64,000 nt of DNA from Serendipita indica DSM 11827 (Eukaryota; Basidiomycota; Agaricomycetes; Sebacinales; Serendipitaceae), in assembly GCA_910890315.1 (NCBI GenBank), contig CAJVGD010000042.1:558001-622000 (forward strand), given 5' to 3'. Under the pieces are notes generated by a model, which saw only the letters and a program-made list of their open reading frames with translations, searched no databases and was not told the DNA's origin. This document shows, piece after piece, positions 1 to 41,965 of this stretch (within the stretch, counting starts at the first letter, position 1; each line of letters begins with the position of its first letter). A program made the position numbers and the translations under genes.

Positions 1-5
1 GGAGC

Positions 6-1010
6 ATGGTATCGAGTGCCATATCTGTCCGTGATAGCTCAGTCAGGGCATTGGTCTGCAGAGACTGGAATCGGATCTGGTGCGACACGCCGAGGATCTG
101 GAGAAGAATCCTCTTGTCGGCGGATACTACACCAGATCCATTCTGTACCGGCAGGTTTGTCCAAGAAGACTGTCGACGGCACCTTGAGACGTGCCGGTGC
201 CAATTCTACTCGAGCCTACCCTGGCCGCAGATCTCGGTGACGAAAGGCACGAGTTTCCGAAGCCAGGTGTTCAGATTTTTACACTGTCAAGGCCCCCTCT
301 CAATGATCACGTTCTCATCTAACACTTGGACCTGGTCAAGCTCCCCCTCGGAGGCGTCTTTGAACAAGGCAACCTCACGAGCCTCAAATCTTTCATGATC
401 GCGTCAGAGTACCCAGTCGGCTTGCTCTACAAACCGCTAAGAGGGCGATACAGTTAACAGACCGTCTGACAGGCTCTAGCGTCTACATACATCGAGCACT
501 TCAATCAAGATTTTCCCGTTGGCGTTTAGGAACGGGCCGTCTGGACTAGGCTCGTCCGTATCACCGTTCGCCGCGAGTTTGACGTGGGTAGACGCACCTT
601 GCTCTGTCGCTGGAGCTTTGGTTCCACTCTGCTTGGCCTGCATGGGCCGAGGTGAACCTCAGGCGTGCTCGAAGGAACGCCTTCAGCATGCCCAAGGCCT
701 CCAGTTCCCCATACACTGGTTATCCCGCCGCCGCCACCGCCGCCGCCACCGCCGCCGCCGCCACGACTACACCCGCTCATCAGCCACGGCCTTGCACTTG
801 CCCGACGGTGGGGACAGCCGCAGTGGTAATGCAGGCCCCTGACATTCTACGCCAGATTCAAACCGTCATACATGCGCATGCTAACGATGTCCCTTGCAAC
901 ATATTCAACAGATTAGAAGGGCTATATCGACCAAAGCACCTCTCCAACTCGACTCTAGCACTATAAGCACCCTCTCAAGGTGCTCAAAGTGCGAATCCAA
1001 CTCGACTTCA
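6..1010 (+). pseudogene. F-box/LRR-like gene relic, copy 1
   Basis: The first part of this stretch reads as a piece of an F-box-type protein: VCRDWNRIWCDTPRIWRRI fits the 'VCR.W...TP.LW..I' pattern that follows an F-box in many basidiomycete proteins. No frame stays open over a normal F-box protein length and no convincing introns join the pieces, so I call it a relic. Bases 330-650 align with 5,235-5,560, for example around 'GCGTTTAG', the 'TCGTCCGTATCACCGTTCGC' segment and 'GCGTGCTC', so two diverged copies of the same ancestor are present. The left edge may continue outside the window. Function would have been ubiquitin-ligase substrate choice, if the F-box reading is right; that is inference. 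Confidence 0.45.
725..764. repeat. CCG/CCA triplet microsatellite
   Basis: About 40 bp of imperfect CCG/CCA triplets. It makes long poly-Ala, poly-Arg/His and poly-Gly frames on the two strands, none of which belongs to a believable gene. It lies inside the F-box-like relic and is absent from the paired copy near 5.6 kb, so it expanded after the copies split. Confidence 0.85.
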
Positions 1011-1551
1011 CTCTCTATCGACTGATGAAAACGTGCATCAAGTCCCTGTTTTGCAAACTCGGTTCCCTCGACGCGGCTTGCTCGTTCATTCTTTGGCCCA
1101 CCGAGCCTTCTACAACCCGACCAGTCCCTTCCTCTTGCCCAAATTGAGGAATAGACGATGGAAATGCAGTGGCCCCAGGCCTCCAGACGCTCATTGGGCA
1201 ACGCAGGTCGCACGCTGCTGGAGCTAAGCGAAGAGTTTGCATCCATTGAGGTGCATATCCGAACTCGAGCTCATCACATGCAAGCAGAGGGAGGTAGTAC
1301 TACACGCGTCGCAATACCCTTTCTCTCCCTCCACGGATACTTTCCACTTGCAGTAACGTACATGTCGAGAGCCACGGTATGTACGTTGTCCTTATTCCGA
1401 CGTATCTAATATCTGACAGAGAAAGGAACAAAAAGTACTATAATTGCCTATATACGAAGTAAATGACGCAAGTACAATATGCCCAGTTCTCGAGGTACAA
1501 GGTTGAACGCGAAAACACAAGAACTTGGAGCCAGCCATGCTAGAAGAATGG

Positions 1552-2084
1552 CTAGGAGGAATGGATGAAACCGGAGAACGTGCTATAGTGACCCGAGATT
1601 AGTGGGGCGAACACAGGCAGTGGCAGTGACGACTTACCGGTCTGGACCGTTCCATTGTGGCTCGACAGCTATTCGAGGATGGGTCAGCGTAGGCGAAGAA
1701 GAGGGCAAGAGAGAGCGCGTACACTCGTCGGTGGTCGTAGCGGTGTCGTTGTGCGTTGGATGGACACCGTTGGTCGTAGAGGGTTGAGACGGTTGAGGTG
1801 TTTGTGGACCATTGCTGTTGGCAGATGGACCTTGTGCGGAGCCGTGGGAGACATTTGGCGTGACGGGACCGGCATTGGGGGCGTAGGCGGCAGGAGGGGG
1901 AGCGTGCACCGACGTCGTGCTAGGGGTCGTCGTCGAGGTCGATTGGGAGACTAGGAACGTGTCAGTCAGACCATTTGAAGAGCGCGAGTGATCCACCAGC
2001 AGCGTTGCCTGTTGCGAGCGGCGTTAGCTTAGTCCCTTCGACCTCGTCCCCTCGAGGAGTATGCGTACTTTGAGCAGCAGACAT
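1552..2084 (-). CDS. A1: small Pro/Thr/Ser-rich protein with a 12-nt microexon
   Basis: Not a family I recognise. Five exons read from high to low coordinate: 2084-2069, a 12-nt microexon (GCAACGCTGCTG, next to the intron ending CAACAG and the donor GTGGAT), 1950-1723, 1668-1638 and 1582-1552. All introns are GT-AG and the joined frame closes at 105 residues. The protein starts MSAAQ, has a long disordered Pro/Thr/Ser/Asn-rich middle, then a conserved VEPQWNGP segment and a C-terminus containing FSGF. There is no signal peptide, membrane segment or known domain. Exon phases and the last two exons match A2-A4, which is the main support. Copy A1 ends earlier than the others because its last exon is 31 nt, not 43. 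Expression is unproven. Confidence 0.72.
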
Positions 2085-2132
2085 TGCGAAGACAAGGTTG
2101 GGATAAAGAGGCTCGAGGAAAGGGAGCTCAAC

Positions 2133-2138
2133 TTTATA
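2133..2138 (-). promoter_or_regulatory. TATA box of A1
   Basis: TATAAA on the minus strand, 54 bases before the A1 ATG. The same element is found 50-54 bases before the ATG in A2, A3 and A4, and the motif 'GAACAA' or 'GAACAG' lies just upstream in several copies. Confidence 0.65.
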
Positions 2139-2144
2139 GCCTTG

Positions 2145-3400
2145 TTCATGGTCGACATGGATGAATTGCTGGACTGGGCAAGGCTGTTATTGTTATAGAG
2201 TGAGTTGCTTGCGTTCGACGAACACGACCGATTTCTCGGTGAGACGACCCGTGTGCAGACCCAATTCGCTGAACCTGCGCTTCATGACGTATCTTCAACG
2301 TTGCGCACGCACAGTTCAAGTGGACGTTTGCCACCGGCTACTTCCGGATCCTTCGGGTGGTCGCTCGGGTGGGATGGTTGTCGGGAAACACTTGACGCCA
2401 CTCGCGTGTTGAACGGTGTGATACAATTGACCCTATATGCGGCTAACTTATGGTACAGAAGTTTCAGCGGTTTGTCCACGCAGCAAATGCTGGAAGGCCA
2501 GTAGCTTGGAAATTCCACTCTCTTGCCATCAAAGGCGCGGTTACGTTTCATACTCTACTGCTACCACGTGGAGGCGCCACCAGCGGTGTTGTCTCGAAGC
2601 GTAGGCGTTTGATGTCTCTCTACGCAAACGGTACTCTCGCTTCCCATCGCCGACTCCATCGGGAGTTATTGGTAGTCCCCGATGTTACCGTCTACACGGA
2701 ATTCTGACGGTTCAGACTGTACTGTATCATTGTTGGGACTTGTCTGCAGGTCGCGACAGCGCCCGGATAGCTCTACAGAGGAGATCTGCTGCTAGCGTTC
2801 GTTGTCACTTCTTTCACCTTACTCGATTTGACCTTACAGCAGTACCTATCATTTACCGGAGCGCTATAAATGATCATGTCGGCTCTTGGAAACTATGTAA
2901 AACGTCCAATTGACCCACACGCTTTCACCGCGCGGCCTGCTTGGTGTCCACAGAAGCCACAGCAGTCTACAAGAGCAGTCCCGTTCGCATCCCACGATTT
3001 ATCAACTCAAATGCGTACACGACCGAGAGACAATTGAAACATGTCTATTGGACGAGACATGGAAACCCTAGCCCAACAAACGAACGTCGCCGCGATTACT
3101 CTGGACCATGAACAGTCTCGGAAGCGAGCTAAATAGAAAGCTGCGGTCAGGGCATCTTGGGACTTGTGACCGGCATGAAAGCCAGGAACTCACATATGCC
3201 AGCTTCATATCCAGCACGATCACACACTACCGACTGAGGCTCCAATGATCGAATTCCAGAGAGTGCATGTGATGGAAGCGACCTTGCCCCGCTAATCACA
3301 CTGCTGTAGCCTCTTCCAAACAGGAAGGCACGCGCACTATCCTTACCGTTATCGACACGCAATCACCGAGACGCTCCAACTCAATCATTATTTCACACGA
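2145..3400. other. Upstream flank of A1 and unassigned DNA
   Basis: Bases about 2,270-2,385 align with about 4,460-4,580, so this flank was duplicated with the A genes; on the minus strand both encode a short 'HPKD..VAGG' stretch that may be a remnant exon. An 85-codon ATG frame at 2,450-2,707 on the plus strand has no paralogue kept open in the sister copy, and I do not call it. I see nothing clear in 2,720-3,400. Confidence 0.4.
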
Positions 3401-3642
3401 ATACCGAAACTCGAGACATGAAGCATTCATGTCTTTCCAGCAGCAGCAACGTGCCGGACCTATAGATATCAAGAACCATAATAGGGATGTCGTCCATATC
3501 CCGACGTATTTGGTATCTAACAGAGAAAGGGAACAAAATAATATGATTGTCGACATATGAAGGAAATGGCACAAGTACAATATGCTCAACCCTCGAGATG
3601 CAGGTTTGAACACGAGAAACACGAGGGTTGAACCCAGCCAGG

Positions 3643-4170
3643 CTAGAAGAATGGCTCGGAGGAACAATCAAAACCGGAGAATGCGCTGTCGAGTTCCGAG
3701 ATCAGTGGGCTACTGACAGCGAGGATGATGGGTTACCCGTTTGGACTGTTCCATTGCGTCTGGACAACTGCTCCAGATGCTTCGGCGTAGTCGGAGAAGA
3801 CAATAAGCGAGAAATGTACAGAATGTACATTCGTAGGCTGTCACAGCAGCCTCAGTGTGCGTCGGGACAGTGCCGTTGGTCGCGGGCGGCTGTAGTGGTT
3901 GACGTTGTGATGGGACATTGGTGACTTGTGGTTTCTTGGGGATCTGGGGGGTATTTGAAGCGACAGTATCGACGTTGGGAGCGTGGCTGGCAGGAGGGGG
4001 AGCGTGGACCGAGGCCGGGTAGGAGACTTAGGACAGGTCAGCCAGATATTTCCGAAGAGATTGAATCTTTCACCAGCGGCGTTGTCTGGAGCGAGCGAAA
4101 TGGACGGCGTTAGCTTGGTCTCCTCGTCGTTTTTCCCTCAAGGGGTGTGCTTACTTTGAGCAGCAGACAT
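3643..4170 (-). CDS. A2: small Pro/Thr/Ser-rich protein with a 12-nt microexon
   Basis: Paralogue of A1 with the same five-exon plan: 4170-4155 (MSAAQ), microexon 4085-4074 (ACAACGCCGCTG), 4026-3829, 3767-3737 and 3685-3643. Summed length is 300 nt, giving 99 residues with the frame open throughout. Exon lengths 16, 12, 31 and 43 nt are fixed across copies; only the third exon, coding the Pro-rich disordered part, varies in length, always by a multiple of three. The C-terminus reads GAFSGFDCSSEPFF. Keeping splice phase across diverged copies argues for selection on the protein. Function unknown. Confidence 0.72.
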
Positions 4171-4217
4171 GGCCGAGACGAGGTTGCGATACAGAGGCTT
4201 GAGAAAAATGAATTCGA

Positions 4218-4224
4218 CCTTATA
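4218..4224 (-). promoter_or_regulatory. TATA-like box of A2
   Basis: TATAAGG on the minus strand, 54 bases before the A2 ATG. It sits where the TATA boxes of A1, A3 and A4 lie and differs from them at the sixth base. Confidence 0.55.
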
Positions 4225-5118
4225 GCTCTGTTCTCGAACCGAGCCTCAGGTCTGACTCGCTCAGGATAGACAGTCCCTTGTACTAGCCGCGTCCGAATGT
4301 ATCACAGTATTATTTGCTATCTGAGGTGGGGGACGTCAAGTCCATTGGGTATTGAATTACTGGGATCGGTAACAACAGTCTTGTATCGTTGACTGCATAT
4401 TGTATCTCAGTTCGAAGAGCCTCCAGGATGACAACTCAACGCTCAACGAGTCCGTTTGTCTGAGCCCTGCACTGCATGTCATTTCCTTGACCTTGCGTAC
4501 GCATAGTACTGAATGTTCGCCACCGGCTACGTCCCGATCCTTGGGGTGTCGGTGTGGTGATGGAGGTGGCATGTTCGCTTGACCAGCTCCCTAATTGGCC
4601 CTTGACAGCGCTCGCATTCTCTTGCCGTCCACAATAAGATTTGACTGTCAACTTTTTACGGCATTGTTATTTATGGGTGACAGAGACACGCGATGGCGGC
4701 CCAGTTGAAGACGGTAAGGAGGCCTGCACTGCAGAACCAGAGGACTACTTATTACGTGCTACATTTTCTCTATTCAATACATCTGCGCTTTGGAATGCTC
4801 GTTCCTGGACGCAGGGCTCAACTTGGCACCTCCAGCACGATCCGCCATCCACCAGACAGCTGCAAATGATTAATAACGGCCACCTTGACTCTCCATGTAT
4901 CCCGTCCCTCAATTCCGGCGAGTCGTTCCTTTGGATACGAGTGGTGGGTGCTGACAGCTCCGCCTGCTAGCCGATCCCTGTTCTACAACGGTTCTCGAGA
5001 GACTCGAGCAAAACTTGTCACGAAACACCCCAGATGTAGAAGAAGCATGTGACTTTGGCCCGAGAGAACGCCACTAAACACTCGTGCTTGGACATCCACC
5101 CCACCCTAGAGTACGCGG
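4225..5118. other. Upstream flank of A2, no gene recognised
   Basis: The first 350 bases pair with the A1 flank. Bases about 4,720-4,860 look distantly like 8,940-9,110 and 11,555-11,710, around 'GGAC...TCCAGCA', suggesting a third old repeat. No open frame here is supported by splice sites or by conservation. Confidence 0.4.
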
Positions 5119-5850
5119 ATGTCAGTTTACTCGAGCCCCACTTTAGTCGTGGGTCCAAGTGACGAGAATTATCCAATTATTTCACCTTATAACACTAACA
5201 TCATGCTCCTTTGTGATATCGTCTATCCCCGCATAACACTTGGCCAAGGCAAACGCCTCGGGGTCTTCGAAAAGGGAACTACCACGAGTCTTGGATTGCT
5301 CATGATCACACCAGCCTACCCAAGTGGTTCGCTGCCATCAAAGAAGATGACCGACGCGGCCGACAAGCTCAGAAGCGTTGACCTCAAGATTTTCAATGGA
5401 TAATTTCTCGCTAGCGTTTAGAAATGGATCTCCTGGACTCAGCTGGTCTGTATCACCGTTCGCTGCACTTTGATGCTGTCAATGTGCCTTGCTCTGTCGC
5501 GCGCGGATCGTTAGAGCCTTTGTTCTTTTCCAAGATGAACTTCAAGCGTGCTCAAACCTCCACTTCTCTATCAATACGCTGATTATCGATAACGCACCTC
5601 TGCAACCATACTCGACCATCATCATCGCACCGCTTGAAGTATTCCATTTGCTGACGGCGAGGCTAGTCTCAGCGGTATCCAGGCCCCGAAGCTCAAGAAA
5701 TTCCACCTCGGCATTCAAACTGCCACACACCGGTCGCCAGCGATGTCCTTCACGCGATTTCCGATGGAAACGAGGGCATACAAAGGCCATATTCGAACCC
5801 GCATCAAGCAAAGGAGAGAGCTGATAGCGTGTAAGGTTCTGGTTTGAATC
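5119..5850 (+). pseudogene. F-box/LRR-like gene relic, copy 2
   Basis: This aligns with the relic at the left edge: the stretch around 'CTTCGAAAAGGGAAC' pairs with 'TTTGAACAAGGCAAC', and 5,405-5,560 pairs with 500-650. The longest plus-strand frame, 94 codons at 5,119-5,403, is not kept open in copy 1. I see no F-box sequence left in this copy. It lies directly downstream of the A3 gene, as copy 1 lies downstream of A1, so relic and A gene were duplicated together. Confidence 0.45.
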
Positions 5851-6235
5851 ATACGCCATTGGAAGAGCCGAGCGAAGCGTTCAGCCATCCAACAATGTGT
5901 CTAGCGTGCTCCATTCACCCTAGCATGTGCCTTGTGTACATTGAGGCGCATGTCCAAACCCAACATCGTAACAAGCAAGCGGAGTAGAAGTAGTATTGCA
6001 CGCGTCGCAATACCCTTCTTCCACCACCATGGGATACCTTTCCACTTGGAGCACCGTTACTGACCCACAGAGGTCGGGAACCATGGTATGTATGTCGCCC
6101 TTATCCCGAGGTATATAACACATAACAGAGAGAGGAGCAAAGTACTACGGCTGCCAATACAAACGAGTACAATATGCTCGGCTCTCGAGGTACACGATTG
6201 AACATGACAAGCACGAGGTATTGAACCCAGCCAAC

Positions 6236-6778
6236 CTAGAAGAATGGCTCGGAAGAGCGGTCGAAACCGGAGAATGCTCTATGACGTCCCGAGATCAGTA
6301 AGGCCATGCGTGGCGACGACGATGGCTTACCCGTTTGGACCGTTCCATTGCGTCTGGACGACTATTCAAGGATGCGTCAGCATATTCGGAGAAGACGGCG
6401 AGCGAGAACGTACACTCATAGGTTGTCACAACAGCCTCAGTGGGAGTCGGGTCAGCACCGTTGGTCGTGGATGGCTGGGACGGTTGAAGTAGTGGACCAT
6501 TGTTGGTAAACGGAGCTTGTGCGAGGACTTGGGGCGTATTTGGCGCGACGAGGGCGACGTTGGGAGCGTGGCCGGTAGGAGGCGGAACGTGAGCCGGCGT
6601 CATGGGCAGCGTGGTCGAGGTTGATGGGGAGACTTAGGGTGGGTCAGTCAGATGTTCCCAGCAAGAGAGCGAGAGATTCACCAGTAATGTTATCTGTAGC
6701 GAGCGAAATTGATGGCGTTAGCTTGGTCTCTTCGCCCTCGTCCCATCAATGAGAGTACATACTTTGACCAGTAGACAT
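6236..6778 (-). CDS. A3: small Pro/Thr/Ser-rich protein with a 12-nt microexon
   Basis: Five exons: 6778-6763 (starting MSTGQ), microexon 6693-6682 (ATAACATTACTG), 6632-6414, 6361-6331 and 6278-6236. They total 321 nt, or 106 residues. The fourth exon encodes QTQWNGPNG and the fifth ends FDRSSEPFF, matching A2 closely. The microexon has diverged at several bases from A1 and A2, yet length and phase are unchanged. A3 is divergent from B1, with 308 bp between the two start codons. No signal peptide, no membrane segment and no recognised domain. Confidence 0.72.
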
Positions 6779-7086
6779 GACGAATACGGGTTTGGAGAAG
6801 GATTGGTCGAACGAAATACCTTGATTTTATAGCGTTGTTCACGAACTGAGCTGGTGGTCTGAGCCGGTGGTCTGAGCCATTCACCTGAACGGCTCATAGA
6901 CAAGTACACTGCCCGCCTCTATTCGGGAACCGAGGCCATGGACCGTAGACGTGGGCTCATGGGTGTATCCGTGCCCGTGAACCGTGGCCCCGATGTTGAG
7001 AAGATGAGCCGGCTCTACCGACGGATTAGCTGACTGGCCACTCTCAGCATCGCCCTATCTTGTCTCTCAACACCCCGACCTGACTA
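6779..7086. promoter_or_regulatory. Divergent promoter between A3 and B1, with TATA box of A3
   Basis: TATAAAA on the minus strand at 6,825-6,831 lies 53 bases before the A3 ATG. The B1-side half contains repeated CCGTGAACCG/CCATGGACCG-like pieces, which recur in the matching flank of B2 at 12,070-12,170. The shared motif could be a regulator site serving both genes, but I only see the repetition. Confidence 0.5.
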
Positions 7087-8516
7087 ATGACTACTCCTAT
7101 GGAGACTCGAGATGGGTTTATAGAGCGACTCTCGAGGACGTATCGAGACTCGAATGTCTTTATCTTTAGCCTTCCACCAGAAGCGGGGAAATACGACCTA
7201 GAAGGCGCGAATTGTCCCTCGTGCCCGATGTATCTCAGCAGCTCGTACAAACTCAAGCGTACTCCGTCCGGCTACGTTGTAGGTCTTTACTTGTCGGAAT
7301 GACTAGGCACTCATAAAGACCAATTAGTGTTCATCTACTTTGACAGGTCACATAATACATGCGTTCTTCATAGACGACCTCGAGTGAGTGTTAGCTTGAC
7401 CGTTGTGAACGGCTCATTCAATCAAAAATAGGCTCTGGGTGACCGACTTCAATGCTATTGGCGAAGTTGGGCAAGAGTTGGCCCTCATTTCCCAGGTCGC
7501 CAGTCCCCGACTCAATGCTGATATTTCATTCGGCACCGGTGGTCAGCAAGCAGCTTCCCAGCCCCAAATAGATGTCTCTTCAAGGAGGGAGGAACACTCG
7601 GGCTTACTCGCGGTAGAGGAATCAGGAGCTGATGAACCTATTCCATCGGAACAAGACGGTTCAGCGGAATCTTGGGACGTGGAAATCATGTACTGGCCTC
7701 CAAAGGTTAGTTTATCTTCTGGTTCGTGGACGATGCTCAGAGTTTATATAGCCCGGTGATGGCTATCTTGCTTGGCCTCCTCGTGTAACGCAGGTTCCTT
7801 ATCGAATCCTCTCTGACGACGAGGTAGTAGTCAACATAAGGTCCGAACTTCCGCCCGAGCTTCAACGTGCACTTTATGGTACCGAATCAGACTGGAGATA
7901 CGTCTCATATTACGACATGGAGCGGTCTATATGGGTGACCGACGCCGTTTCGCCTGAGTGGGCTCCCGTCGTTAGGGGCCGCCCGCTCCTTCTCCGCCAT
8001 TTCACAGTGCAAGACGACCAATGCTTAGGTTGGGAAGCCACCGTTGAAGCTGCTGGCTTCAAGGTGCTTAGACCAATCTTGGAAGGACAAGTCGAAGAGT
8101 CATCAACCAAATCCAAGTCTAACGAGGGCTTGGATTCTCGATCTACAAAGCGTCGACGCGTCTGCCTCGCCAGGCCACAGAGTACCTCTACGAAAACTCC
8201 TAGGAATATCCGGAGAGACAGAAGAGAGCGTCAGTATGATCGCGGATCCAGTCGAGGAAAACCGAGTTGGTGGATGACCATGTCCGCCGGCGGGGTCATC
8301 ACTGGTCTGAAGGAGATAGAAAGACTGAAAGGTGTTGATGTGAGAGCAACACTAAGACAGCGTTTTGAGCGAGTCTTCCCAGAGAAGCAATTCGCGCTCT
8401 CGACTGTGAAGCGGATGATTACTGCCTTCAACTGCTTATCCGAAGACGATATCAAGCGATATTCGAACCAGGACTCGGAACGTCCATGGAGTGAAGTCTA
8501 CGCACGGGCAAAGTAG
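7087..8516 (+). CDS. B1: unknown protein, probably nuclear
   Basis: Family not recognised. Likely exons are 7087-7282, 7347-7383, 7432-7705 and 7794-8516, all GT-AG, giving 409 residues with consistent phases. The N-terminus has a CPSCP motif at about residues 43-47 inside a block shared with B2. The middle is acidic and low-complexity. A conserved segment VEIMYWPPK spans the third splice junction. The C-terminal exon carries a KRRRV basic cluster, a WWMTMSAG motif, and a helical end with QRFERVFP and ALSTVKRM, finishing RPWSEVYARAK. The basic cluster suggests a nuclear protein; that is inference. The ATG at 7087 was chosen because B2 has the same start and block. The divergent neighbour is A3. 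Confidence 0.75.
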
Positions 8517-9650
8517 CGGCATGGCGACCCACGTCTAGCACGTATACCAATACACCTATGTAAGTCCGTTGAGTTTTATGTAGTGTATGTATCTTTTGTG
8601 AAACAATGGTATCCCGTAATACCTGCTTTTCAACCATCTCGCCTCCCTTTGGAGCGGTGTGGAAGTCGACGATAGGCACTTAATTAAATAGGCGTCTAGA
8701 TTGTCTGAAAAGTCGCCCAAAGTACAAGTATGGCTGATGCAGTATAACGTATATGCCAACCGCTGGTGTCATGGGGGATACCTCTCCATCCTCGACTTGG
8801 TCCCTCCTCTATTGGGACTTAGTAGCAGTCACCCTTTGTTGCCGTCTACACTGAAGCCTGGTTGTTGGTATTTTATTATGTTATCGTTTGGACTGTGCTG
8901 CAGGTCGCAGGCCGCTAGATCGCTCTGCAGGTTGGAGAGGAAGGAAATTCATTCGTACAGGGTTGAAAGTTTGTTGATTGCCGGTCATAGTCCTCTTTTC
9001 CAACCATGGATACACTGTATGCCTTGGACTTTCATTTCCATGGCCCTCAGAAGGAGCTCAGCTCGGTGTCTCCAGCAGAATAGAATCTGTCGTTCACCGT
9101 AGAGTCACAAACGGCCAAAAATAATCACACTGGATCCTTGAATATCACCCAAAACTCCCAAACGTTCTCCACGCCGCCAAGTTGCAACTGTACGGATTGC
9201 ATCCATGCCCACCATCCAAGCAAGCCACAGTGTTGGATAAAACCCAATTCCGAACCGCACCTCACGACAATTAATTGACCTGAATCTGCTTTCCCTCACA
9301 AACGCGACCTAGCAACGACTGACCCCAGTCGTTGGACGCGGCATGGAGACTCTGTGCCTGCAAAACAAACATTAATACGATTATTTGGTGCTCGCAGCAA
9401 TCCTGAAGCAGCTTCAATGCTCAGGGTACCCGCACTGGCAGCGTAGCAGTAAGCTATAGACAACTTTTTCTAGATGCTTCGTCCTCAACACGGTTGCAGA
9501 ATAGATGTATTGCGCAAGATTTGCACTTCAACGACCAAAGTCCTGGACGGAGTCGAATCTCACTCCACAATCTGTCGACTTGTAGGAAATAAGAGGGCTT
9601 ACGAACTATTTTCCCCAATATTCATATCTACCGCCGAACCACTACAATTC
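8517..9650. other. Intergenic DNA with an old repeat
   Basis: Bases about 8,940-9,110 pair with 11,555-11,710 ('TTGATTG.C.GATCATAGTCC' on both sides with differences). The 133-codon frame at 8,701-9,102 begins with TTG and is not open in the other copy, so I do not call it. 9,120-9,460 has no gene I can support. Confidence 0.4.
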
Positions 9651-10005
9651 ACCATCGTTATAACTCAATTATCAACCCTCACACCCAAGGCCATGCCCGG
9701 CAAGCGACGAGACTCAAAGGTCAGTCATTATCTCAGTAATATAGCACCAGGAATCCATGTCCATAGTGAGTGGTAAGCTCCATAGGCACCAACTTATATC
9801 GAGAATCACGGTGCGTACGTCCTCGTCATTGCAGTCTGTCTAATATGTGAACAGAGAAGGTAACAGAAGGACATTGGAGCCCATACTTCATTGCCGATAA
9901 CAGAAATAAATACTCTTGGTGTAATACACTTCGTTCTCGGGAGGCCAAATTGAGCATGACAAAACACAAGGGGAGGGGGTTCTCTCTCAGTTCAGCCCCG
10001 TTAGG

Positions 10006-10546
10006 CTAGGCGAACGGCTCAAAGGTACGACGGAATCCGGAGAAAATGCTGCCGCTTCACAGGTCAGTTGGGCATTGATGGCAAGATGGTGGCTTACCCG
10101 TTCTGACGGTCCCATTGCGGCTCGACGACTAGCCGAGGTTTGTTTAGTGTGACAGAGGAGTGGTGCAAATGATTGCTTACACTCGGGGATGGTTGGATCA
10201 GCCTCGCTGCAACGAGTACAAGGTCTGCGAGTTGTCTCTTGGGATTGAGCTGATTGGGTGAGGACTGGTGTGACACTGATGGCAGCCTCTTGGGACGATG
10301 TGGTGACGATGGCGGCAGGAGCCTGGAGGACTGGAGGACCATTCGTTTGGGTGGAGGCTTCTCCGGGCACCACCGGCGTGGCTTGGGCGACAGAGGACAC
10401 ATTGGAGGCTACGGCCTTTAGTCAAGTGTACGCAATGGGAATAATCGGTTTACCAGTAGCGGTGTCTGTATGAGCGAGCCTGGCGTCAGCCTGGTCCGTC
10501 TGCGATCTCGCCCTCGGGGAGCATACTTACTTTGATTAGGGGACAT
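10006..10546 (-). CDS. A4: small Pro/Thr/Ser-rich protein with a 12-nt microexon
   Basis: Most diverged intact member. Exons: 10546-10531 (MSPNQ), microexon 10465-10454 (ACACCGCTACTG), 10408-10181, 10128-10098 and 10048-10006, together 330 nt or 109 residues. The middle is rich in Thr, Ser, Gln, Ala and Pro and has two Cys near its end (PCTRC), absent from the other copies. The fourth exon encodes VEPQWDRQNG and the last contains IFSGF and ends FEPFA. Two acceptors are moved relative to A1-A3 (GTAG before exon 3, GGCAG before exon 5), yet exon phases and the 43-nt last exon are restored. That is good evidence of constraint. Confidence 0.65.
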
Positions 10547-10589
10547 GCTGGAGTTTGGAATGAAGATGACTGTGGAAGCGATCTTTGGC

Positions 10590-10596
10590 CTTTATA
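10590..10596 (-). promoter_or_regulatory. TATA box of A4
   Basis: TATAAAG on the minus strand, 50 bases before the A4 ATG, at the position kept in the other A copies. Confidence 0.6.
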
Positions 10597-10699
10597 CTCG
10601 CGCCTTGAAGGATAGGACTGCCGCGAGCTGGCGCAACGGCAACGGCGATCGGTCCTGTTTTGCGCTGTACCGATGACCAAACCAGGATTATATCCCGGA

Positions 10700-11080
10700 A
10701 TCAAAGAGGAGAATCGTATGCACTGATCGTCCCCGGCCTCCTGCGCAACTGGGCGACATGGCTATTGTGGAGCGCAAACTGCCCAGTATTGAATTCAGAA
10801 TCACCTCGGGACTTCCCATTTACACCGAGATGGCTAACCCATCTCTGCGAGCTTGGAACGAGGCATCTGATCAGTGGACGCACTCCTCATCCTTCAGCGG
10901 CTCGGTGAGCCTTTTCCTTTCGAGTTATCCCCAATTCGACGCTTTTAGCTGCAGAAAGCTTCGATATTATGGTCCGCACTGAAATCTTAGAGATTGATTG
11001 GTCGTATGAGCCTTTGGGATTCACCAAAACCGGCGCTGGCGTAGTTTGCGAATTTTTCAATGATTGAAAGAATAGTATCT
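10700..11080 (+). pseudogene. Possible small gene or relic upstream of A4
   Basis: A frame from ATG 10,758 runs toward a donor-like GTGAGC near 10,904 and a CTGCAG acceptor near 10,959. Downstream there is a well-formed frame beginning SFDIMVRTEI and ending CEFFND before a TGA. The phases do not join cleanly with the first frame, so either the first exon is another one or the gene is decayed. I do not recognise the product. Confidence 0.25.
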
Positions 11081-11819
11081 TCCTCTGTGCTATGGACGGC
11101 CTGGTCCCCAACGGCCGTCAAGGGAACAGCTCAAACGTGCAGTGGGAGTGCAAATTCGGAGAGGCACCCTTGGGGCAGTTCACCAAGCCGCGTGAGGCCG
11201 GTTCTATATGACCGTGCTTTCCCAAAGAGGGTCTATTGAATGTCTATGTCGTCTTCGAGGACTGCTAGAGATCCCGAGGTGTAGACACGGCCGGTGAGCA
11301 GTACTAGTCATATGCAAAATACCAGATAGAGTTTCATATTCGTTTTCTTGCTAGTAAATGTGTGACTCTCCTCCACCCGCCCTCGACGTTTCACTCCCGG
11401 CCATATTTGGTATTAAGGAATTGGTGGCCACCCCTCCCTTATCGGGTGCCCCCACCCCCGAAAATTGTCCTCGAATTGTACCGTTGTTCGAACTGCACTA
11501 CTGGTCTCAAGGCTAAACGACTCTACATAAAGTTGAGCAGGACAAGGAGATTTCCTATTGTAAGATTGGAGGACTGTTGATTGGCTGATCATAGTCCTTT
11601 TCGAAATATAAATACAATTTCCTCCTTGAATACCTCCATTTCCTATCTCTCTGAGCGACGGAAGGCTTAGCTGGGTTTCCAGAACAGCATCTACGTTCAC
11701 CAGAGTTACCACGAAACATTATTGGCGGCTAGTTCGACACTTTCATATTATCGTTCCCATCGCTGTCACTATCTAGCAGAGCGTAAGCTGATGCCGTGGC
11801 AGGCTTCGCCGGGGTCGCT

Positions 11820-11959
11820 TGGGAGAGTAAGACGAGCCAGTCAGCCGTGCTCAGCGAGAGCACCGGCAGTGTCGTCCTTAGCTGGCGAAAAGGATGGTGT
11901 TAGCTTGGTCTCTTCGTCCCCGCCTCCTCGAGGATGTACTTACATTAAAGAGCAGACCT
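11820..11959 (-). pseudogene. A5: relic of the 5' part of an A gene
   Basis: Aligns with the first exon and first intron of A1-A4. The start codon is replaced by AGG (11,959-11,957), while the GTAAGTAC donor and the 'CCAAGCTAACACCAT' branch region survive. The TATA box seen in the intact copies has become CTATGAC. The downstream exons are not found. It stands divergent to B2 just as A3 stands to B1, so the A/B pair was duplicated and this A partner then decayed. Confidence 0.6.
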
Positions 11960-12233
11960 TGAGGAAAGGACCTCAGAGTCATAGTGCAATTCACGAACCG
12001 AACCATGTGTCATCTAAGTCGTTAATAGCTTGAACGACCCATTCGATAGGTGAACTGTTCGCCGCCAGACCCGTGAACCGGAATCGTGGACCGTGGGCTA
12101 GCTCCATGATTGTGGCGTGCCTAACGTGTGCCATGGATCCGACCTTTGAACGTCTTGAGCCGTCGACCCGTAGGCTGGACCCCCTAATGTGTCATTTTTC
12201 TTTCTTCTGTCCTTGTTCGACCCAACTTGACCA

Positions 12234-13709
12234 ATGACCACGTCCATGGAGACTAGAGACGCTTTTATGGAGCGACTCTCGCAGATGTTTCGAGGCTCGA
12301 ACCTGCCTATCTACACCCTTCCAAAAGAGACGGAGGAGTACGATTTGGAAGGCGTGGATTGTCCCGCCTGCCCAATAAATTCCCACCCGAACAAACTCAA
12401 GCGGGACAGTCACCGTTCAGGGTACTACGTAGGTCTTTACTTTTCGAAACATTCAACTATCTGAAAATTCAAGTGTTTTTCTCCTCTTCCGCCTTCCGCT
12501 GGCTTGATGGTGCATGGGCCGCATACATTCTTCTCTGACCCCCCTTCGCCCCTGTGGTGGTGTGTTTGAACTTTTTTTTTTTACTTCACATCTAATCATG
12601 AGCAGGCCTTTCATTGCTGGCAACAAATCTAGCGCCAAATCTCCCGCCAACCCTGACAAAGCTGTGTCATACCATGCCCACACTACTCGCCAGCTCGAAG
12701 ACCGTCGAATCGGTATTGAAGACGCACTCGACGCGAACCTTCAGCGAGCAACTCGCCGACCTGAGAGGGACTCTGTAAGGAACGAGGGGCCCTCGCCCTT
12801 GGTCGCGGTGGATGACGAGGAGATTAGTACGGAAAACGAGCGTAGTCCATCGTATAGCAGCGACCTACAGGAACTTTGGGAGGTGGAAATCATGTATTGG
12901 CCTTCAAAGGTTGGTTTATCCTCTGGTTCGTGGTTCGTGGACGATGCTCAGAGTTTATATAGCCTGCTGGTAACTACCTCGCTTGGCCACCTCGGGTCAC
13001 ACGTCGTCCGTACAAGGCTGCCGCCAACGAGAGGTGCTTTGCCGACTTGACATTCAATGGGAACCTCGACCTTCAACGTGCCGTTTACGGTACCGAACGC
13101 GATTGGAATTTCACTTCATACTACGACATGGCGCGTTCTGCATGGATCACCGACATGACGAACCCAGACTGGGTCCCCCTGTTCAAGGATCGTCCTCTAC
13201 TCCTTCGCCACTTCACTGTGCAAGATCATCAATGCTTGGGTTGGGAAGATGTGGTTGAAGCTGCTGGCCCTAGGGTGCTCAAGCCGATTCTGGATGGCCA
13301 AGAGTCATCGAGCGAGGATTCAAATTCGAGGCCTACGAAGCGCCGCCGCATTTCTTCCACCTGTTCACAAAGTGAATCCGCAACGTCCTCTCGGCATATT
13401 CGGACAGGCAGAAGAGAGCACCAGAAGAACGACAGTGGGACCAGTCGAGGGAAACCGAGTTGGTGGATGACTATGTCCGCCGGCACAGTCGTCGCTGGCC
13501 TGAAGGAGATAGAAAGACTTAAAGGCGTTGATGGGAGAGCAACACTACAGCAACGGTTTGAGCGGGCCTTTCCAGGGAAGCGATTCGCGCTCTCGACTGT
13601 GAAGCGGATGATCACTGCCCTCAGCCACTTACCCGAGGACGATATCGAGCGCTATTTGAATGAGGACTCGGAGCGTCCATGGAGTGAAGTATACGCACTG
13701 GCAAAGTGA
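12234..13709 (+). CDS. B2: unknown protein, paralogue of B1
   Basis: The first exon, ATG 12,234 to about 12,432, matches B1 including a CPACP motif and the GTAGGTCTTTAC donor region. The next part differs from B1: a frame from ATG 12,598 to 12,909 follows a 12-T tract and ends with VEIMYWPSK, the B1 equivalent being VEIMYWPPK. I could not join exon 1 to it in phase, so transcription may start before 12,598 or an exon is missed. The last exon runs to TGA 13,709 and keeps KRRRI, WWMTMSAG, QRFERAFPG and RPWSEVYALAK. The B1 acceptor GCAG is lost here; the nearest in-phase AG is near 13,015. Function unknown. Confidence 0.65.
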
Positions 13710-14428
13710 TGCCCGACGCCGACTCCTCTCACCACGTATACCAATGTACCAATTTAATCGAGACTTTTGTCTATATCTAATGTATCCGCCTTCTTTTATG
13801 AATGATGCCGCCCAGTAATTCTGGATACTTATTCACTTGTACGCTGGCGGGATAGACCTTGCGCTCGCTCGAGAACCATCTATCGTCGTCTATATATCAG
13901 ATCGTGTCGCGAGCCTTTTGGGTGGATACCGGCCAGGGTTCGTGGCGTCAGGAGCTTGTCCTATGTCGCAACTTGGCTCTTGACGCGCCAATCGCCGAGT
14001 ACCTATCAAGAATGTCTTTCAAGCGACACTCAATCGTGGCATGGAGGCTTCTTAGATCATAATCACCGCCGAACCTTTATGACAATCAATTAGGGCATAG
14101 CTTTTGAGCCGTTTACCTCGCTGGATAGTGCTTCTAATATACCACAAAGATGCCGATACGTCTCCAGCTACGGCACTGTATCTTCTGTTCCCCCCTTGCT
14201 ACGAGCTAATGATCGTTTCGAGACCTTCAGCGGGGAGGGCGTACAGTGACATCAAGGAAGAGCCGATCATCATTTAGGATGCCACTTCATCCCGTACCGT
14301 GTCTCATTCGGTGATGCGGATTCAGTTGCCATTCGCTCAGCACCTGCATCGATTAGTCTTTGACATCCACGGCGGAGACCGAGCATCCCAAGTATAAAGG
14401 AAGTCTGATTCTGGACTCTTGACTGTTC

Positions 14429-16702
14429 TTTCAAATGCCCGAGGCAACATCATCCGGCAACTAGTTTGTTTCTTGCAAAGTGTATCGACTCTAGGGAGCA
14501 TGACTCTCGACCTTCCAACTCGAATGTTTGGTCACATTGTATCCTTTCTTGTTACGGGTGATCTCTGGATTTGCGATAAATGAAGGGTTAGAACGCTATC
14601 CGAATTCCTTCGAGTCTGTCGCTGCTGAAATAAACGATCCGTCCAGATTTGCTGGCGAAACGCAGAACCTTCGTCGACTGAACACAGCTGTTGAGAACCA
14701 AGTATAAAGACAGATAATTCCGTGTTTCCGCAAAACTTAGCACACGACCCGGGAGTTTCGAGCGTTTTCATACTGGCCGCTCTCATGACGTCATCTATGA
14801 CCGCGTATCCTCAAAAGTCAAGTTTTCTCGTGCGAGTAGAAGAATTATTTATGTCACTTCCTGTGTAGGGCGTCGTTTTCTCTTTAACAAGGTCCTCGAA
14901 GTGTGGTTGAGGCTCTCGATCGGTTGCTCCTTGCTTTCACAGTGACCACGTTATTCGGCCAGGGAAAACAAGGCCCATTGGCAAATTATTGGCTCCCATT
15001 TTATCTCAATAGTGGTTCATAAATCGTCACTATGCTCTCCGTGGCATGGAGGCTGCTTGAGGCAACAGAGAACGCTGTTTGCCTTGGGTAAGCATTAATA
15101 TGTGCTTTGGGAGACGTTAAGAGCTAATCAAAATCACCCCAACACATCTAACCGATGGAAAGGAACAGACACTCGTGCCGCTATGTCTCACAGGTCGTCT
15201 GCCTTTCTAAGCTCCTCTACATGGGTAAATTTGACAGTTTGACTCTTTATTATTCGAAATATTTTTAGTTTACGAGCCAGGGCAGCCCTTTGTCGCGTCG
15301 GAATGCCTTCAACCTTCTTGAGATGTGTGCGAGGGGAGCCCAGGGTGGTCATCTCCTCGCAAGTGACACCATTGCGCTGATTTTTGCCATCCATGAGATA
15401 TTCATGACGATAGAACCAGTCCCTGGTCCGGATGATTGGCCAGAACACAAAGCGACGCAACCTGTAGCCACGTCGCCGCGAACCCAGGCGGGCTGGTGGG
15501 CACGTATAAAACAGCTTTTCCGCTGCCAAATCCTGCACTTACACCTCACTGTAGACTCTGGACATGTAGGTGAGCATTAGTTCTCCCAGGCAAGGGTATC
15601 CAATGTGCTTTCAGGCTAAACTATCGCCCTTGTATATTGCCTCGCTGGTCTCATGCAAGACTTCTGTGCCCTATATCGTGTGTAAATTTTCCTCTTGCTC
15701 CGCGGTTCCGTAAGATAGCATTCGCTGCATATGACGATGTGTGGTGATCGAGCTTATCACCATTCATCACCCGTTACGTATACCACTCTTTCCATGTTCT
15801 ATCACAGAGCCGAGTTAGCGTCCTGTGAGCGCTATAGTCATCAGCCACCTTAGGGCTGGGGTAAGCCAGATTGCCTCTGTCGTCTCCTTGCACGTGTGAT
15901 CTTCGAGCATATGGAGCTATGAGCGAATCCTTTTGGTTCTTTAAATGTCTTATTAACCCAGCGACAGTGCGGTTCAAGGTCAACTTGGGATAATCATGTT
16001 CGGCCATATTAGCTGCTAATCAAGTATAGAAAGGAATGAATCTCCTCTTAATATTACACAAGCCGCACGGTTCAGTAACGATACCGGACTCAGGCTGCCC
16101 ATAGAACCGGTCACAGCCAGAGCAACACACCAAGGTCACTCGCTTCCTTCCAATTGTGTCTTAGTCCGTTTTTATCGGGGAAAACGGCTGATAGTCTTTA
16201 CGGTGAATTGTCCATCATAGGATTCTGATGGATTCTGATATGGTTGTGGGTGTTTTCGGGCCGCCAACCTGTGATGCGCGATTATCTGAGATATGAGACG
16301 GCAGTTTCATTATAAAAGCCTCATGTCTATCGATTCGCCCTTCACCATCTTCTTCCCTTCTCTACAGCTCTACTGTCACATGTCTGGATACTAATCGAAG
16401 CGAGGATTTATAGCTATGTCCGGGATCAAGTTGATTGGGACCGTCTTGTTGTCGATGAGATGGACAACGGCCTCAAGGGCACTCATTCTCTGGGCATGGC
16501 CCATTTCTGGTCTCTATCGACTCGGCGTCTCACGGTCCTGATCAACGACCCGGGATACATATGGAACCTCCTTTGGTTGCCCAGAACGGACGCAGTAGCT
16601 GTACGAGGATTGCATACTGCTCTCTCGGGAAGTAGCAATAAAAGCCCTATTTTGTCTCCTCATCCATCACTGGATTTAACGTTGCCTAAAGGAAAGACAT
16701 AG
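14429..16702 (+). pseudogene. F-box-like gene relic in duplication copy 1
   Basis: A short frame near 14,500 reads LPTRMFGHIVSFLVTGDLW, which looks like the start of an F-box, followed after a stop by LRVCR, the usual next motif. A frame of about 80 codons at 16,460-16,702 (with KGTHSLGMAHFWSL) may be the end of the same gene. Between them, 15,290-15,580 holds a 96-codon frame without support. Stops interrupt any continuous reading and the copy at 18.7-21.0 kb is equally broken. Confidence 0.4.
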
Positions 16703-16908
16703 TAGACTATGGGACATGCCTAGAAGACAGCCGCCTTCTCATCCCTAGATTACATTGATTCACCTTTGGAACCTTCCAGAGGCGCGATAACTCGGCTGGA
16801 TTATTGGTGATGCCGAAGCAAGACTCTCTCCTCAATCCGACCAAGTTTAAGTTCTTTCTAAAGGTGTCACAGGTACGGTCCCGTCTCGGTTTGAATAGGC
16901 CTACACGA

Positions 16909-17258
16909 GTACGTCGCTCAGTGTCCGGCTGCGCGGAGATAATCCGTCGCCTCTGCCGCACGACGCGATCCAGCACGAATATCTGTCGACGGCAGACGAT
17001 GATCAACAAATACCTCGGATTCGGATCAACGAAGGCCAGTACGACGCCAACAGACCGTTTCGCCACGAGGTGCACAGTCAGGCATCCGACTTGGATAGCC
17101 CAATCTATGCGGCAGGAGAACAAGACGATATAGTCCACTTGACGAGCCAGAATACTGTGTGGAGACGCTCTGCGCCGTACGAGCGAGATATCGAGCGGAG
17201 ACGGGTGAGCAGAGGCGCCAGAAGAGAGACGCACCCTGGTACTCAGGCACTCATTTAG
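16909..17258 (+). pseudogene. Truncated copy of the calcium-channel first exon
   Basis: Bases 16,913-17,215 match 21,651-21,953 at about 96% by eye, the N-terminal coding part of the Cch1-like gene (from VRLRGDNPSP to about ERRRVSRG). The frame stays open to a stop at 17,256-17,258, which lies beyond the join. No channel domain is included, so it cannot encode a channel. Most differences from the parent change the amino acid (for example Asp-Ile for Asp-Met, Ile for Leu), consistent with relaxed selection. It is the right end of duplication copy 1. Confidence 0.85.
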
Positions 17259-17261
17259 TCA

Positions 17262-17975
17262 TCTGGTAGCTACCTTGATTGGCCTTGGGTAACGTAGGTC
17301 CCTTATCGAATACCTTCGATGATGGGGAAATACTTGTGAACCCAAGGTCTAAGCTTGAGGCTGGGCTTCTATAGTCACCGAATCAGACTGGAGACGCATC
17401 TCTTATTACGGCCTGGAGCACTCGTGACCTACGCCTTTTCTCTGAGTGTGCTCTTGTCTTCAGGGGCCACCCTCTCCTTCGTCACTTCACAGCGCAATAC
17501 TTCTGTTAAGAGATCGCAGTTGAAGTTGCTGGGTTCAGGGTAGTCAAGATAATCCAGACAGAGGAAGGAGTCGAATAATCACCACGCAAATCTAAGTCAA
17601 ATGAAGCCGGCCTCACCACTACTACATTTCTCACGCTTGGCCACAAAGTACCTCTCATCTTCTTAGGACATTCAGACAGATACAAAGGAGCGATAGAACG
17701 GAAATAGCGGCAGTCGAAGGGGGTGGATTGGTGGATGTCAGTGCTCGCCTTCAGAGCCATTACTGGACTGATGAAGAGAGGGGGTTCAAGGACCTTGACG
17801 ACTGAGAAGTGCTAAAATAACGTTTTGAGAGTATCTTTCCAAGGAAGCCATTCTCCCTCCCGACAGTGAAGTGGATGTTAGCCACATTCGACAGCCTCAC
17901 TAAGCTTTACATCAAGGTATCTGAATGGGAACTCGGTGCGTCCACGGAATGGGGTCTGTGCAATAGTAAAGTGAC
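17262..17975 (+). pseudogene. B3: decayed copy of the B gene last exon
   Basis: Begins inside the intron before the last exon and follows that exon to its end. Early stops and small gaps interrupt it, for example after the segment equal to ELPPELQRALYG and within the Lys/Arg-rich part. Several coding stretches are closer to B1 than to B2 (the ESDWRR region, 'ACGTTTTGAG'), while the 3' flank is closer to B2 ('GCCACCCAGTAATT' against 'GCCGCCCAGTAATT'). Confidence 0.75.
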
Positions 17976-21000: not shown

Positions 21001-21606
21001 ACGGTCACGATGACATATACATAAAAGGCAGCCCGCTTCCCCTTGGATTCCACAGATTCGTCTTCGGGATTTTCCAGAGGTACAGCTCGGCTGGTTTATA
21101 AGTGATGTTGAAGGAAGAATCTCTCCTCGATCGGGCCAAGCAAAGTTATCGGTCCCGTCTTGTTCTGAATAGACCTACACGAGCACGTAGAATGAGGCAC
21201 AAGGCCTAATTACTACGCTGCATCTCAGACTACGATCAAACTTGTGCCTGTTACGACCTTTGACTCGCCGTTTACAATCGCAAAGTCTGCTCCATGGAAA
21301 AAGCGTTCGATCCTTGTGATACACTGCTACTGCTTGCAGCTTGGTTACTGAGATAGGTCTATCTCTGAAGGCTAGATAATCGTCGAGTTTGAATCGTACA
21401 GTTTGAAAGTGTAATGATATCATGTTTCATGACCATTATTCATCGTCTCTGCGCTGCGGCCCTCCAACCAGTGTCCGGGATCCGTCGGCGTCGAGGGCAA
21501 AGTGGAGACCCAAACTCTTTCCGCGACCTCGCCTGTGCAGGTCTGCCAAAATTACGAGACAATTGATTAATACGTTGGACTCTTACAATCTCTTGCAAAT
21601 TGACGA

Positions 21607-41732: not shown

Positions 41733-41965
41733 ATCGACGAGCACAACGCCGGTGAGAGCGCGAGACAAGCCTGTGTACCCACCAGCACCGGATGCTATGC
41801 AGACTCTTATACAGTGCCGTTGACTGTCGGATTCCGAAATCTCAATAGTCAAGTAAGTGGCGTATCATTCCAAAAAAATCACAAGAAAGAAAGCGTACAC
41901 ACGTGAATGGAAAACACCATGATCACGAGGGAGTATGAAAAGATGAAAAGTCCAAGCAGTTAATC

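What the first reader, a model, noticed from the sequence alone, without database searches (positions are those of the whole stretch)
1552..10546. New four-member gene family with a conserved 12-nt microexon
A1-A4 are diverged, yet each has exons of 16, 12, variable, 31 and 43 nt (31 in A1), the same phases, and a TATA box 50-54 bases before the ATG. The microexon sequence changes among copies but its length, phase 1 position and both splice sites do not. Variation in exon 3 is always a multiple of three. The encoded 99-109 residue proteins have a disordered Pro/Thr/Ser middle and a conserved QWNGP...FSGF end. Automatic gene callers would probably miss the microexon and so miss the family.
Basis: seen in the sequence. 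Interest (0 to 1): 0.85.

Follow-up and report, generated by a model that had tools for sequence, protein, structure and literature searches.

The report
Small fungal gene family with microexon
A fungus, very probably a root symbiont, carries a tight row of related small-protein genes, most of which contain an exon only 12 bases long; the genes look real, but two copies no longer have that tiny exon's boundaries, so it is probably inherited gene structure and not a vital switch.

Summary
In detail: A1-A4 have the claimed exon sizes, phases, GT-AG sites and TATA positions. Searches of the 24.7-Mb genome found no convincing copy elsewhere, though they miss distant members. The fungus is very probably Serendipita indica. 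The 12-nt microexon is intact in 5 of 7 copies; in B its donor is gone and the former 45-nt intron 2 reads in frame; in C introns 1 and 2 are absent. Protein ends are constrained in many, not all, comparisons; the Pro/Thr/Ser middle is nearly free; A1 has an early stop and A0 looks relaxed. Best reading: a lineage-restricted small-protein family in birth-and-death evolution, with a constitutive, inherited microexon and a conserved C-terminal tail as likely working part. No meaningful match in Pfam, NCBIfam or PDB. Function is unproven, and no RNA data were available. Copy B is a candidate de-intronization, a rare event. New orphan family of a known kind.

The parts
1552..2084 (-). gene A1, 105 aa; exons 2084-2069, 2008-1997 (microexon), 1950-1723, 1668-1638, 1582-1552; early stop against A2-A4
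   Evidence: spliced model; alignment
3643..4170 (-). gene A2, 99 aa; exons 4170-4155, 4085-4074 (microexon), 4026-3829, 3767-3737, 3685-3643
6236..6778 (-). gene A3, 106 aa; exons 6778-6763, 6693-6682 (microexon), 6632-6414, 6361-6331, 6278-6236
10006..10546 (-). gene A4, 109 aa; exons 10546-10531, 10465-10454 (microexon), 10408-10181, 10128-10098, 10048-10006
1997..2008 (-). 12-nt microexon of A1
4074..4085 (-). 12-nt microexon of A2
6682..6693 (-). 12-nt microexon of A3
10454..10465 (-). 12-nt microexon of A4
2134..2138 (-). TATA box of A1
   Evidence: 54 bases before ATG
4220..4224 (-). TATA box of A2; GTTCGAGAAC starts 69 bases before the ATG
6827..6831 (-). TATA box of A3; GTTCGTGAAC starts 68 bases before the ATG
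10592..10596 (-). TATA box of A4
   Evidence: 50 bases before ATG
11853..11957 (-). relic of an eighth copy: intron-1-like and microexon-like stretch; start codon lost, acceptor AG out of register by one base, no exon 4 or 5 found
   Evidence: BLAST; sequence; alignment

Best explanation
This is a tandem array of a lineage-restricted small-protein gene in Serendipita indica (or a very near relative), expanded by local duplication and now in birth-and-death evolution. Shown from sequence: seven full copies and one relic in one 17.3-kb stretch, one shared exon plan with two departures, fewer amino-acid than silent changes at the protein ends in many comparisons, a nearly free middle, and members that look to be decaying. 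Inferred: each gene is transcribed from its own TATA promoter; the spliceosome recognises the short (45-72 nt) introns by intron definition (recalled principle), so a 12-nt exon between two such introns is spliced in constitutively and adds four residues (mostly N-N-A-A) to the N-terminus; the mature protein of 94-134 residues has no signal peptide or membrane segment, is mostly a disordered Pro/Thr/Ser/Ala/Asn/Gln linker, and works through its conserved tail (FVEPQWNGPNGxFSGFxRSSEPFF) as a short linear motif that docks on a partner. The microexon is inherited architecture and not the working element: B and C do without its boundaries and keep the frame and the tail.
For: Gene models. One array, no convincing copy elsewhere. 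Coding: exon 3 is 183/228/198/219/228 nt in A0-A4 and 258 plus the 45-nt block in B, all multiples of three. Over up to 34 end codons, 7 of 15 pairs of six copies show fewer nonsynonymous than synonymous changes at one-sided p<0.05 (B with all five others, A2-A3, A3-A4), and C against all 6 others over the 25 C-terminal codons (p 0.00027-0.044). Pairs are not independent and p values are uncorrected. The middle has pN/pS 0.70 as a ratio of means over six pairs of A0-A3. Exons 1, 2, 4 and 5 are more conserved than exon 3 and introns 2-4. Microexon dispensable: in B the donor is AC and the 45-nt block reads HETLAPHASAQPVPV with no stop, while the same reading of intron 2 meets a stop in A0, A1, A3 and A4 (A2's has no stop but is 47 nt and shifts the frame); in C MSSPNTGDNNASPVAQAT is contiguous. 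On the unrooted tree A0-A3 group (98-100), B joins them (80-86), and A4 with C lie on the other side, so loss in B and in C separately is simplest. No signal peptide: highest 9-residue hydropathy in the first 30 residues is 0.31-1.07.
Against: No RNA or protein evidence was available. Eight of 15 pairs do not reject equal rates, and A0-A1 is 0.92, so some copies may be pseudogenes. Intron 1, which would be free to drift under this reading, is conserved almost like the exons (mixed significance), which hints at a role for it. The docking-tail idea rests on conservation alone. Support for B's place in the tree is moderate (80-86) and there is no outgroup. The genome searches are not sensitive: A3 DNA and A3 protein both missed A4 and A4 DNA found only itself, so 'only one array' holds for near relatives only.
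Confidence: 0.6

Rival explanations
1. The microexon is a regulated switch: the conserved 3' half of intron 1 (around GACCAAGCTAACGCCATCCATTTCGCTCGCT) binds a splicing factor, and skipping the 12 nt keeps the frame and removes four residues.
For: 12 nt is four codons, so skipping is in frame; the last 40 nt of intron 1 are 0.85 (A0-A3 pairs) and 0.73 (pairs with B or A4) identical with gaps ignored, against 0.54-0.62 for the last 40 nt of introns 3 and 4, similar to exons 4 and 5; three phylogenetically separate pairs give p=0.0027 with gaps ignored.
Against: With gaps as mismatches the same test gives p=0.19; for the whole intron p=0.074 (gaps ignored) and 0.027 (gaps as mismatches). A1 has a 9-nt gap in the block. 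B keeps the block though its next exon is 315 nt; C lacks the intron. A 5'-proximal intron may also be conserved for expression level.
Confidence: 0.15
2. The array is mostly decaying: a few intact copies and several pseudogenes with residual splice signals.
For: Early stop in A1, Trp to Arg in A0, pN/pS of 0.61-0.93 in pairs of A0 or A1 with A0-A4, none of which rejects equal rates; the relic at 11853-11957.
Against: No frameshift in the models of seven copies, GT-AG at every modelled intron, and A2-A3, B and C comparisons show constraint.
Confidence: 0.2
3. A host-directed protein family released without a classical signal peptide, comparable in size to the P. indica DELD proteins.
For: Very probably a root symbiont; small, fast-evolving, tandem genes without a match in Pfam, NCBIfam or PDB.
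Against: No signal peptide by hydropathy; no RSIDELD C-terminus; no expression data.
Confidence: 0.12
4. Non-coding transcripts; the frames are accidental.
For: Low-complexity, stop-poor middle; intron 1 conserved like exons.
Against: Three-base rule for exon 3 lengths, synonymous excess at the ends in many pairs, and the in-frame 45-nt block in B.
Confidence: 0.05

Closest known systems
Expanded gene families of Piriformospora (Serendipita) indica in local clusters (PMC3192844, passages seen)
   Same: Seven full copies side by side; the paper describes expanded families typically in clusters of 2 to 7 genes, attributed to local duplication by unequal recombination.
   Different: No known domain; I could not link these genes to PIIN identifiers or to its family tables.
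Microexons of basidiomycete genes, e.g. Phanerochaete chrysosporium P450s (PMC1184071, passages seen)
   Same: Exons coding for 2-10 aa and frequent introns of 45-55 bp, in clustered gene families.
   Different: Unrelated protein; here one 12-nt exon holds one place through a family and is missing in two copies.
Xlr2 microexon switch of Trichoderma virens (PMC11121469, passages seen)
   Same: A microexon in a filamentous fungus.
   Different: That one is alternatively included and decides between two isoforms of a transcription factor; no alternative use is shown here.
De-intronization as defined in the Cryptococcus survey (PMC2740785, passages seen)
   Same: Copy B: the stretch in the place of the intron is a multiple of three, has no stop and no donor site.
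   Different: That survey of 28,256 introns found none between species; here it is between paralogues and the direction is inferred.
DELD effectors of P. indica (PMC3192844, passages seen)
   Same: Size range (101-135 aa) overlaps; conserved C-terminus.
   Different: No RSIDELD and no signal peptide by hydropathy.

Membership tests
Microexon (usually at most 36 nt, PMC11121469 passage) | internal exon this short between two spliceosomal introns | tested here: met
   by genomic signals in 5 of 7 copies (A0-A4); B and C do not have it
Microexon (usually at most 36 nt, PMC11121469 passage) | spliced into mature RNA | not testable with these tools
   no RNA data
Microexon (usually at most 36 nt, PMC11121469 passage) | regulated inclusion (microexon switch only) | not testable with these tools
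   no RNA data; B and C argue against a vital switch
De-intronization (copy B) | stretch in the intron's place is a multiple of three without in-frame stop and lacks a splice boundary | tested here: met
   45 nt, HETLAPHASAQPVPV, AC for GT
De-intronization (copy B) | block is homologous to intron 2 of the sister copies | tested here: inconclusive
   alignment score reached by 5, 45, 49, 87 and 478 of 1000 shuffles against A3, A2, A1, A4 and A0
De-intronization (copy B) | intron state is ancestral | tested here: inconclusive
   unrooted tree favours two losses, support 80-86 for B's place; no outgroup
DELD effectors of P. indica | C-terminal RSIDELD | tested here: not met
   tails end SSEPFF or variants, A1 ends HSS
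DELD effectors of P. indica | signal peptide | tested here: not met
   hydropathy only, highest 9-residue mean 0.31-1.07 in the first 30 residues; no signal-peptide program was run
P. indica locally expanded cluster | 2 to 7 paralogues side by side | tested here: met
   seven full copies in 15.9 kb, 17.3 kb with the relic
Any Pfam, NCBIfam or PDB family | significant profile or sequence match | tested here: not met
   Pfam: best E 0.04 and 0.092, one member of 6 each (one search gave 0.092 for one of 4); NCBIfam (models for prokaryotes): best 0.1, one of 6; PDB: none at E<=10 with A1-A4. Copy C was scanned only inside its 256-aa open frame against Pfam, none at E<=0.1. PHROGs and PADLOC were not searched

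The most novel reading that the evidence does not exclude
One fungal tandem array preserves three states of the same gene region side by side: a microexon between two introns (A0-A4), the downstream intron turned into coding sequence (B, a de-intronization), and both introns gone (C). This would be a natural series for how microexons arise and disappear, including an event that a 28,256-intron survey in Cryptococcus did not find once (PMC2740785, passages).
Probability: 0.4. Interest if true: 0.6.

Novelty: new member of a known kind. Interest (0 to 1): 0.42.

Why it matters
It adds an orphan small-protein family to what is very probably a well-studied root symbiont and gives a compact, testable case of microexon gain or loss among paralogues. 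It also warns that gene models of such loci depend on exons of 12 to 43 nt. If B is a true de-intronization it is a rarely documented kind of event; if intron 1 proves regulatory, it would be an uncommon case of conserved intronic sequence beside a fungal microexon.

Tried and rejected
Rejected: that the 12 nt belong to one long intron (in A0-A4 they have their own acceptor and donor, and the N-N-A-A codons are contiguous coding in B and, as N-N-A, in C). Rejected: intron 1 as constitutive coding sequence for the family (stop in A2 and A3, frame-shifting length in A4 and B; it is open and in frame in A0 and A1, so retention is not excluded there). Rejected as evidence: low-complexity tblastn hits of the middle elsewhere in the 82 kb and weak genome hits on C2 (E 0.208) and C18 (E 0.393). 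First-look patterns were of little use: one search gave 2 hits, neither in the array, and 2 in the backward control; one search gave 68 hits against 45 in the backward control, with A2, A3 and A4 among the 68. Pattern of the intron-1 branch region with up to 1 mismatch: 4 places, all 4 in the array, but the backward control gave 7, so only the place of the hits is informative. No Rfam match at gathering scores in window 1-12500. No relative in viral contigs (38 pattern stretches, none confirmed) or prokaryote genomes (13, none confirmed), as expected for a fungal gene. Structure prediction was not run: the spliced proteins are not readable letter for letter from one stretch of DNA, which that tool requires. 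Literature searches: (the last listed no paper); in these listings I saw titles and abstract starts, none of which names this family. Only open-licence papers are held, so 'not in print' is not claimed.
Full report
WHAT WAS CHECKED. The window is G000:C40:558001-622000 of a 24.7-Mb genome in 55 contigs. A1's shorter end is a stop codon where A2-A4 have GAG.

THE ARRAY IS LARGER. BLAST with A3 DNA over the genome gave 7 places, all on contig C40 within 554582-569957: A3 itself, A1, A2, A0, two pieces of B, and a relic. A4 was not among them. A protein search with B and reading of the flank added C. The result is seven full copies and a relic on the same strand: C (C40:553062-552610, 116 aa), B (555160-554581, 134 aa), A0 (557188-556668, 94 aa), A1-A4, and the relic at window 11853-11957. 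They span 17.3 kb, the seven full copies 15.9 kb. Genome searches with A3 protein, B DNA, A4 DNA, B protein and C protein found only array members, apart from weak hits on C2 (E 0.208) and C18 (E 0.393). Sensitivity is limited: A3 DNA and A3 protein missed A4, A4 DNA found only itself, and C protein found B and A4 at E 0.0035 and 0.0042. Distant copies elsewhere are therefore not excluded.

THE ORGANISM. A stretch of a phosphate transporter from this genome is identical over about 250 consecutive residues to PDB 7sp5; that 7sp5 is the P. indica transporter PiPT is recalled, the call names it only 'Phosphate transporter'. The genome size is near the 24.98 Mb published for P. indica (PMC3192844, passages seen). 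That paper states that expanded families typically sit in clusters of 2 to 7 genes, likely by local duplication. The array fits this pattern.

THE MICROEXON. It is present with its own acceptor and donor in A0-A4 (5 of 7). Its codons, counting the junction codon, are N-N-A-A (A0, A2), S-N-A-A (A1), N-N-I-T (A3), N-T-A-T (A4). In B the 12 nt are followed by AC in place of GT, and the next 45 nt, the length of A4's intron 2, read in frame without a stop. In A0, A1, A3 and A4 the same reading of intron 2 meets a stop; in A2 there is no stop but the intron is 47 nt and shifts the frame. The B block resembles intron 2 of A3 (5 of 1000 shuffles as good), less so A2, A1 and A4 (45, 49, 87), not A0 (478). 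In C the N-terminus is one open stretch with neither intron; the join is not an exact splice junction (extra T-G-D, and some codons missing against A4). Introns 3 and 4 with the 31- and 43-nt exons are kept in B and C. In the relic the acceptor AG is out of register by one base and the start codon is lost.

DIRECTION. Trees from protein, codons, and the 3' DNA agree: A0-A3 together (99, 100, 98), B next to them (83, 86, 80), A4 and C on the other side. Because introns 1 and 2 occur on both sides (A0-A3 and A4), separate loss in B and in C is the simplest account. No outgroup was available, so this is inference.

SELECTION. Nei-Gojobori counts by script. Over up to 34 end codons, 15 pairs of six copies: dN/dS 0.13-0.28 for B with the others, 0.18 for A2-A3, 0.34-0.92 for the other nine, with A0-A1 highest. 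One-sided Fisher p<0.05 in 7 of 15; the other 8 do not reject equal rates. C against the 6 others over the 25 C-terminal codons: 6 of 6 at p<0.05. No correction was made and pairs share branches. The middle: ratio of means 0.70 over six pairs of A0-A3; A4 and B were left out there because they align poorly. So the ends are constrained in much of the family and the middle is nearly free. A1 (truncated) and A0 (Trp to Arg in the tail) look relaxed.

INTRON 1. Unexpectedly, intron 1 is conserved almost like an exon: 0.78 in A0-A3 pairs and 0.68 in pairs with B or A4; its last 40 nt 0.85 and 0.73, against 0.59-0.62 and 0.54-0.57 for introns 3 and 4 (gaps ignored). Counting gaps, the last-40 values are 0.70 and 0.61 against 0.59 and 0.52-0.55. 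A test on three separate pairs is mixed: p 0.0027 and 0.19 for the last 40 nt, 0.074 and 0.027 for the whole intron, with gaps ignored and counted. It cannot be in-frame coding sequence in A2, A3, A4 or B, but it is open and in frame in A0 and A1. A splicing element or an expression element are both possible.

HOW IT PROBABLY WORKS. Shown: gene structure, clustering, partial constraint. Inferred: expression from each TATA promoter, intron-definition splicing (recalled principle), a soluble disordered protein (Pro+Thr+Ser 34-46%; Lys+Arg 1-6, Asp+Glu 3-14; highest 19-residue hydropathy 1.03; no disorder program was run) that acts through its C-terminal tail. That two copies lack the microexon boundaries but keep the frame and the tail argues that the residues matter more than the exon that carries them.

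WHAT IT IS NOT. No match in Pfam, NCBIfam or PDB at a meaningful level, none in Rfam for window 1-12500. Not a DELD effector (no RSIDELD tail, no signal peptide by hydropathy). Microexons are known in basidiomycetes: P. chrysosporium P450 genes carry exons coding for 2-10 aa (PMC1184071, passages), and a switch-like one is described in Trichoderma virens (PMC11121469, passages). De-intronization was not seen among 28,256 Cryptococcus introns (PMC2740785, passages), which is why copy B deserves an RNA check.

VERDICT. A real-looking, mostly intact orphan family of known kind, larger than reported, with a microexon that is kept in five copies and missing in two. Interest is moderate; it would rise if RNA confirms B's read-through or a role for intron 1.

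Noticed in passing
window 6837-6846 and 4230-4239, and C40:557246-557255 (before the window): The palindrome GTTCNNGAAC (heat-shock-element-like, name recalled) occurs 4 times in 82 kb (about 1.25 expected from length alone); 3 of the 4 lie 67-69 bases before the ATG of A3, A2 and A0, just upstream of the TATA box. A1, A4, B and C lack it.
   Followed up: partly
window 7074-8563, 12221-13757, 17269-17877: Another gene is present in three diverged copies, between A3 and A4 and beyond the array, on the opposite strand; two of the three were scanned against Pfam, best E 0.015 and below cut-off.
   Followed up: partly
window 14621-17242 and 18898-21977: Tandem duplication at about 65-70% identity that contains a 328-nt stretch at 95%, which suggests recent gene conversion or a second, younger event.
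   Followed up: no
window 41931-44251 and 45898-48194: A 2.3-kb direct duplication, mostly at 77% identity.
   Followed up: no
window 3-395, + strand: F-box-like open frame (Pfam F-box-like E 0.0027, below the curated cut-off). A 111-nt stretch just beyond it (500-610) matches 5392-5500 at 74%.
   Followed up: partly
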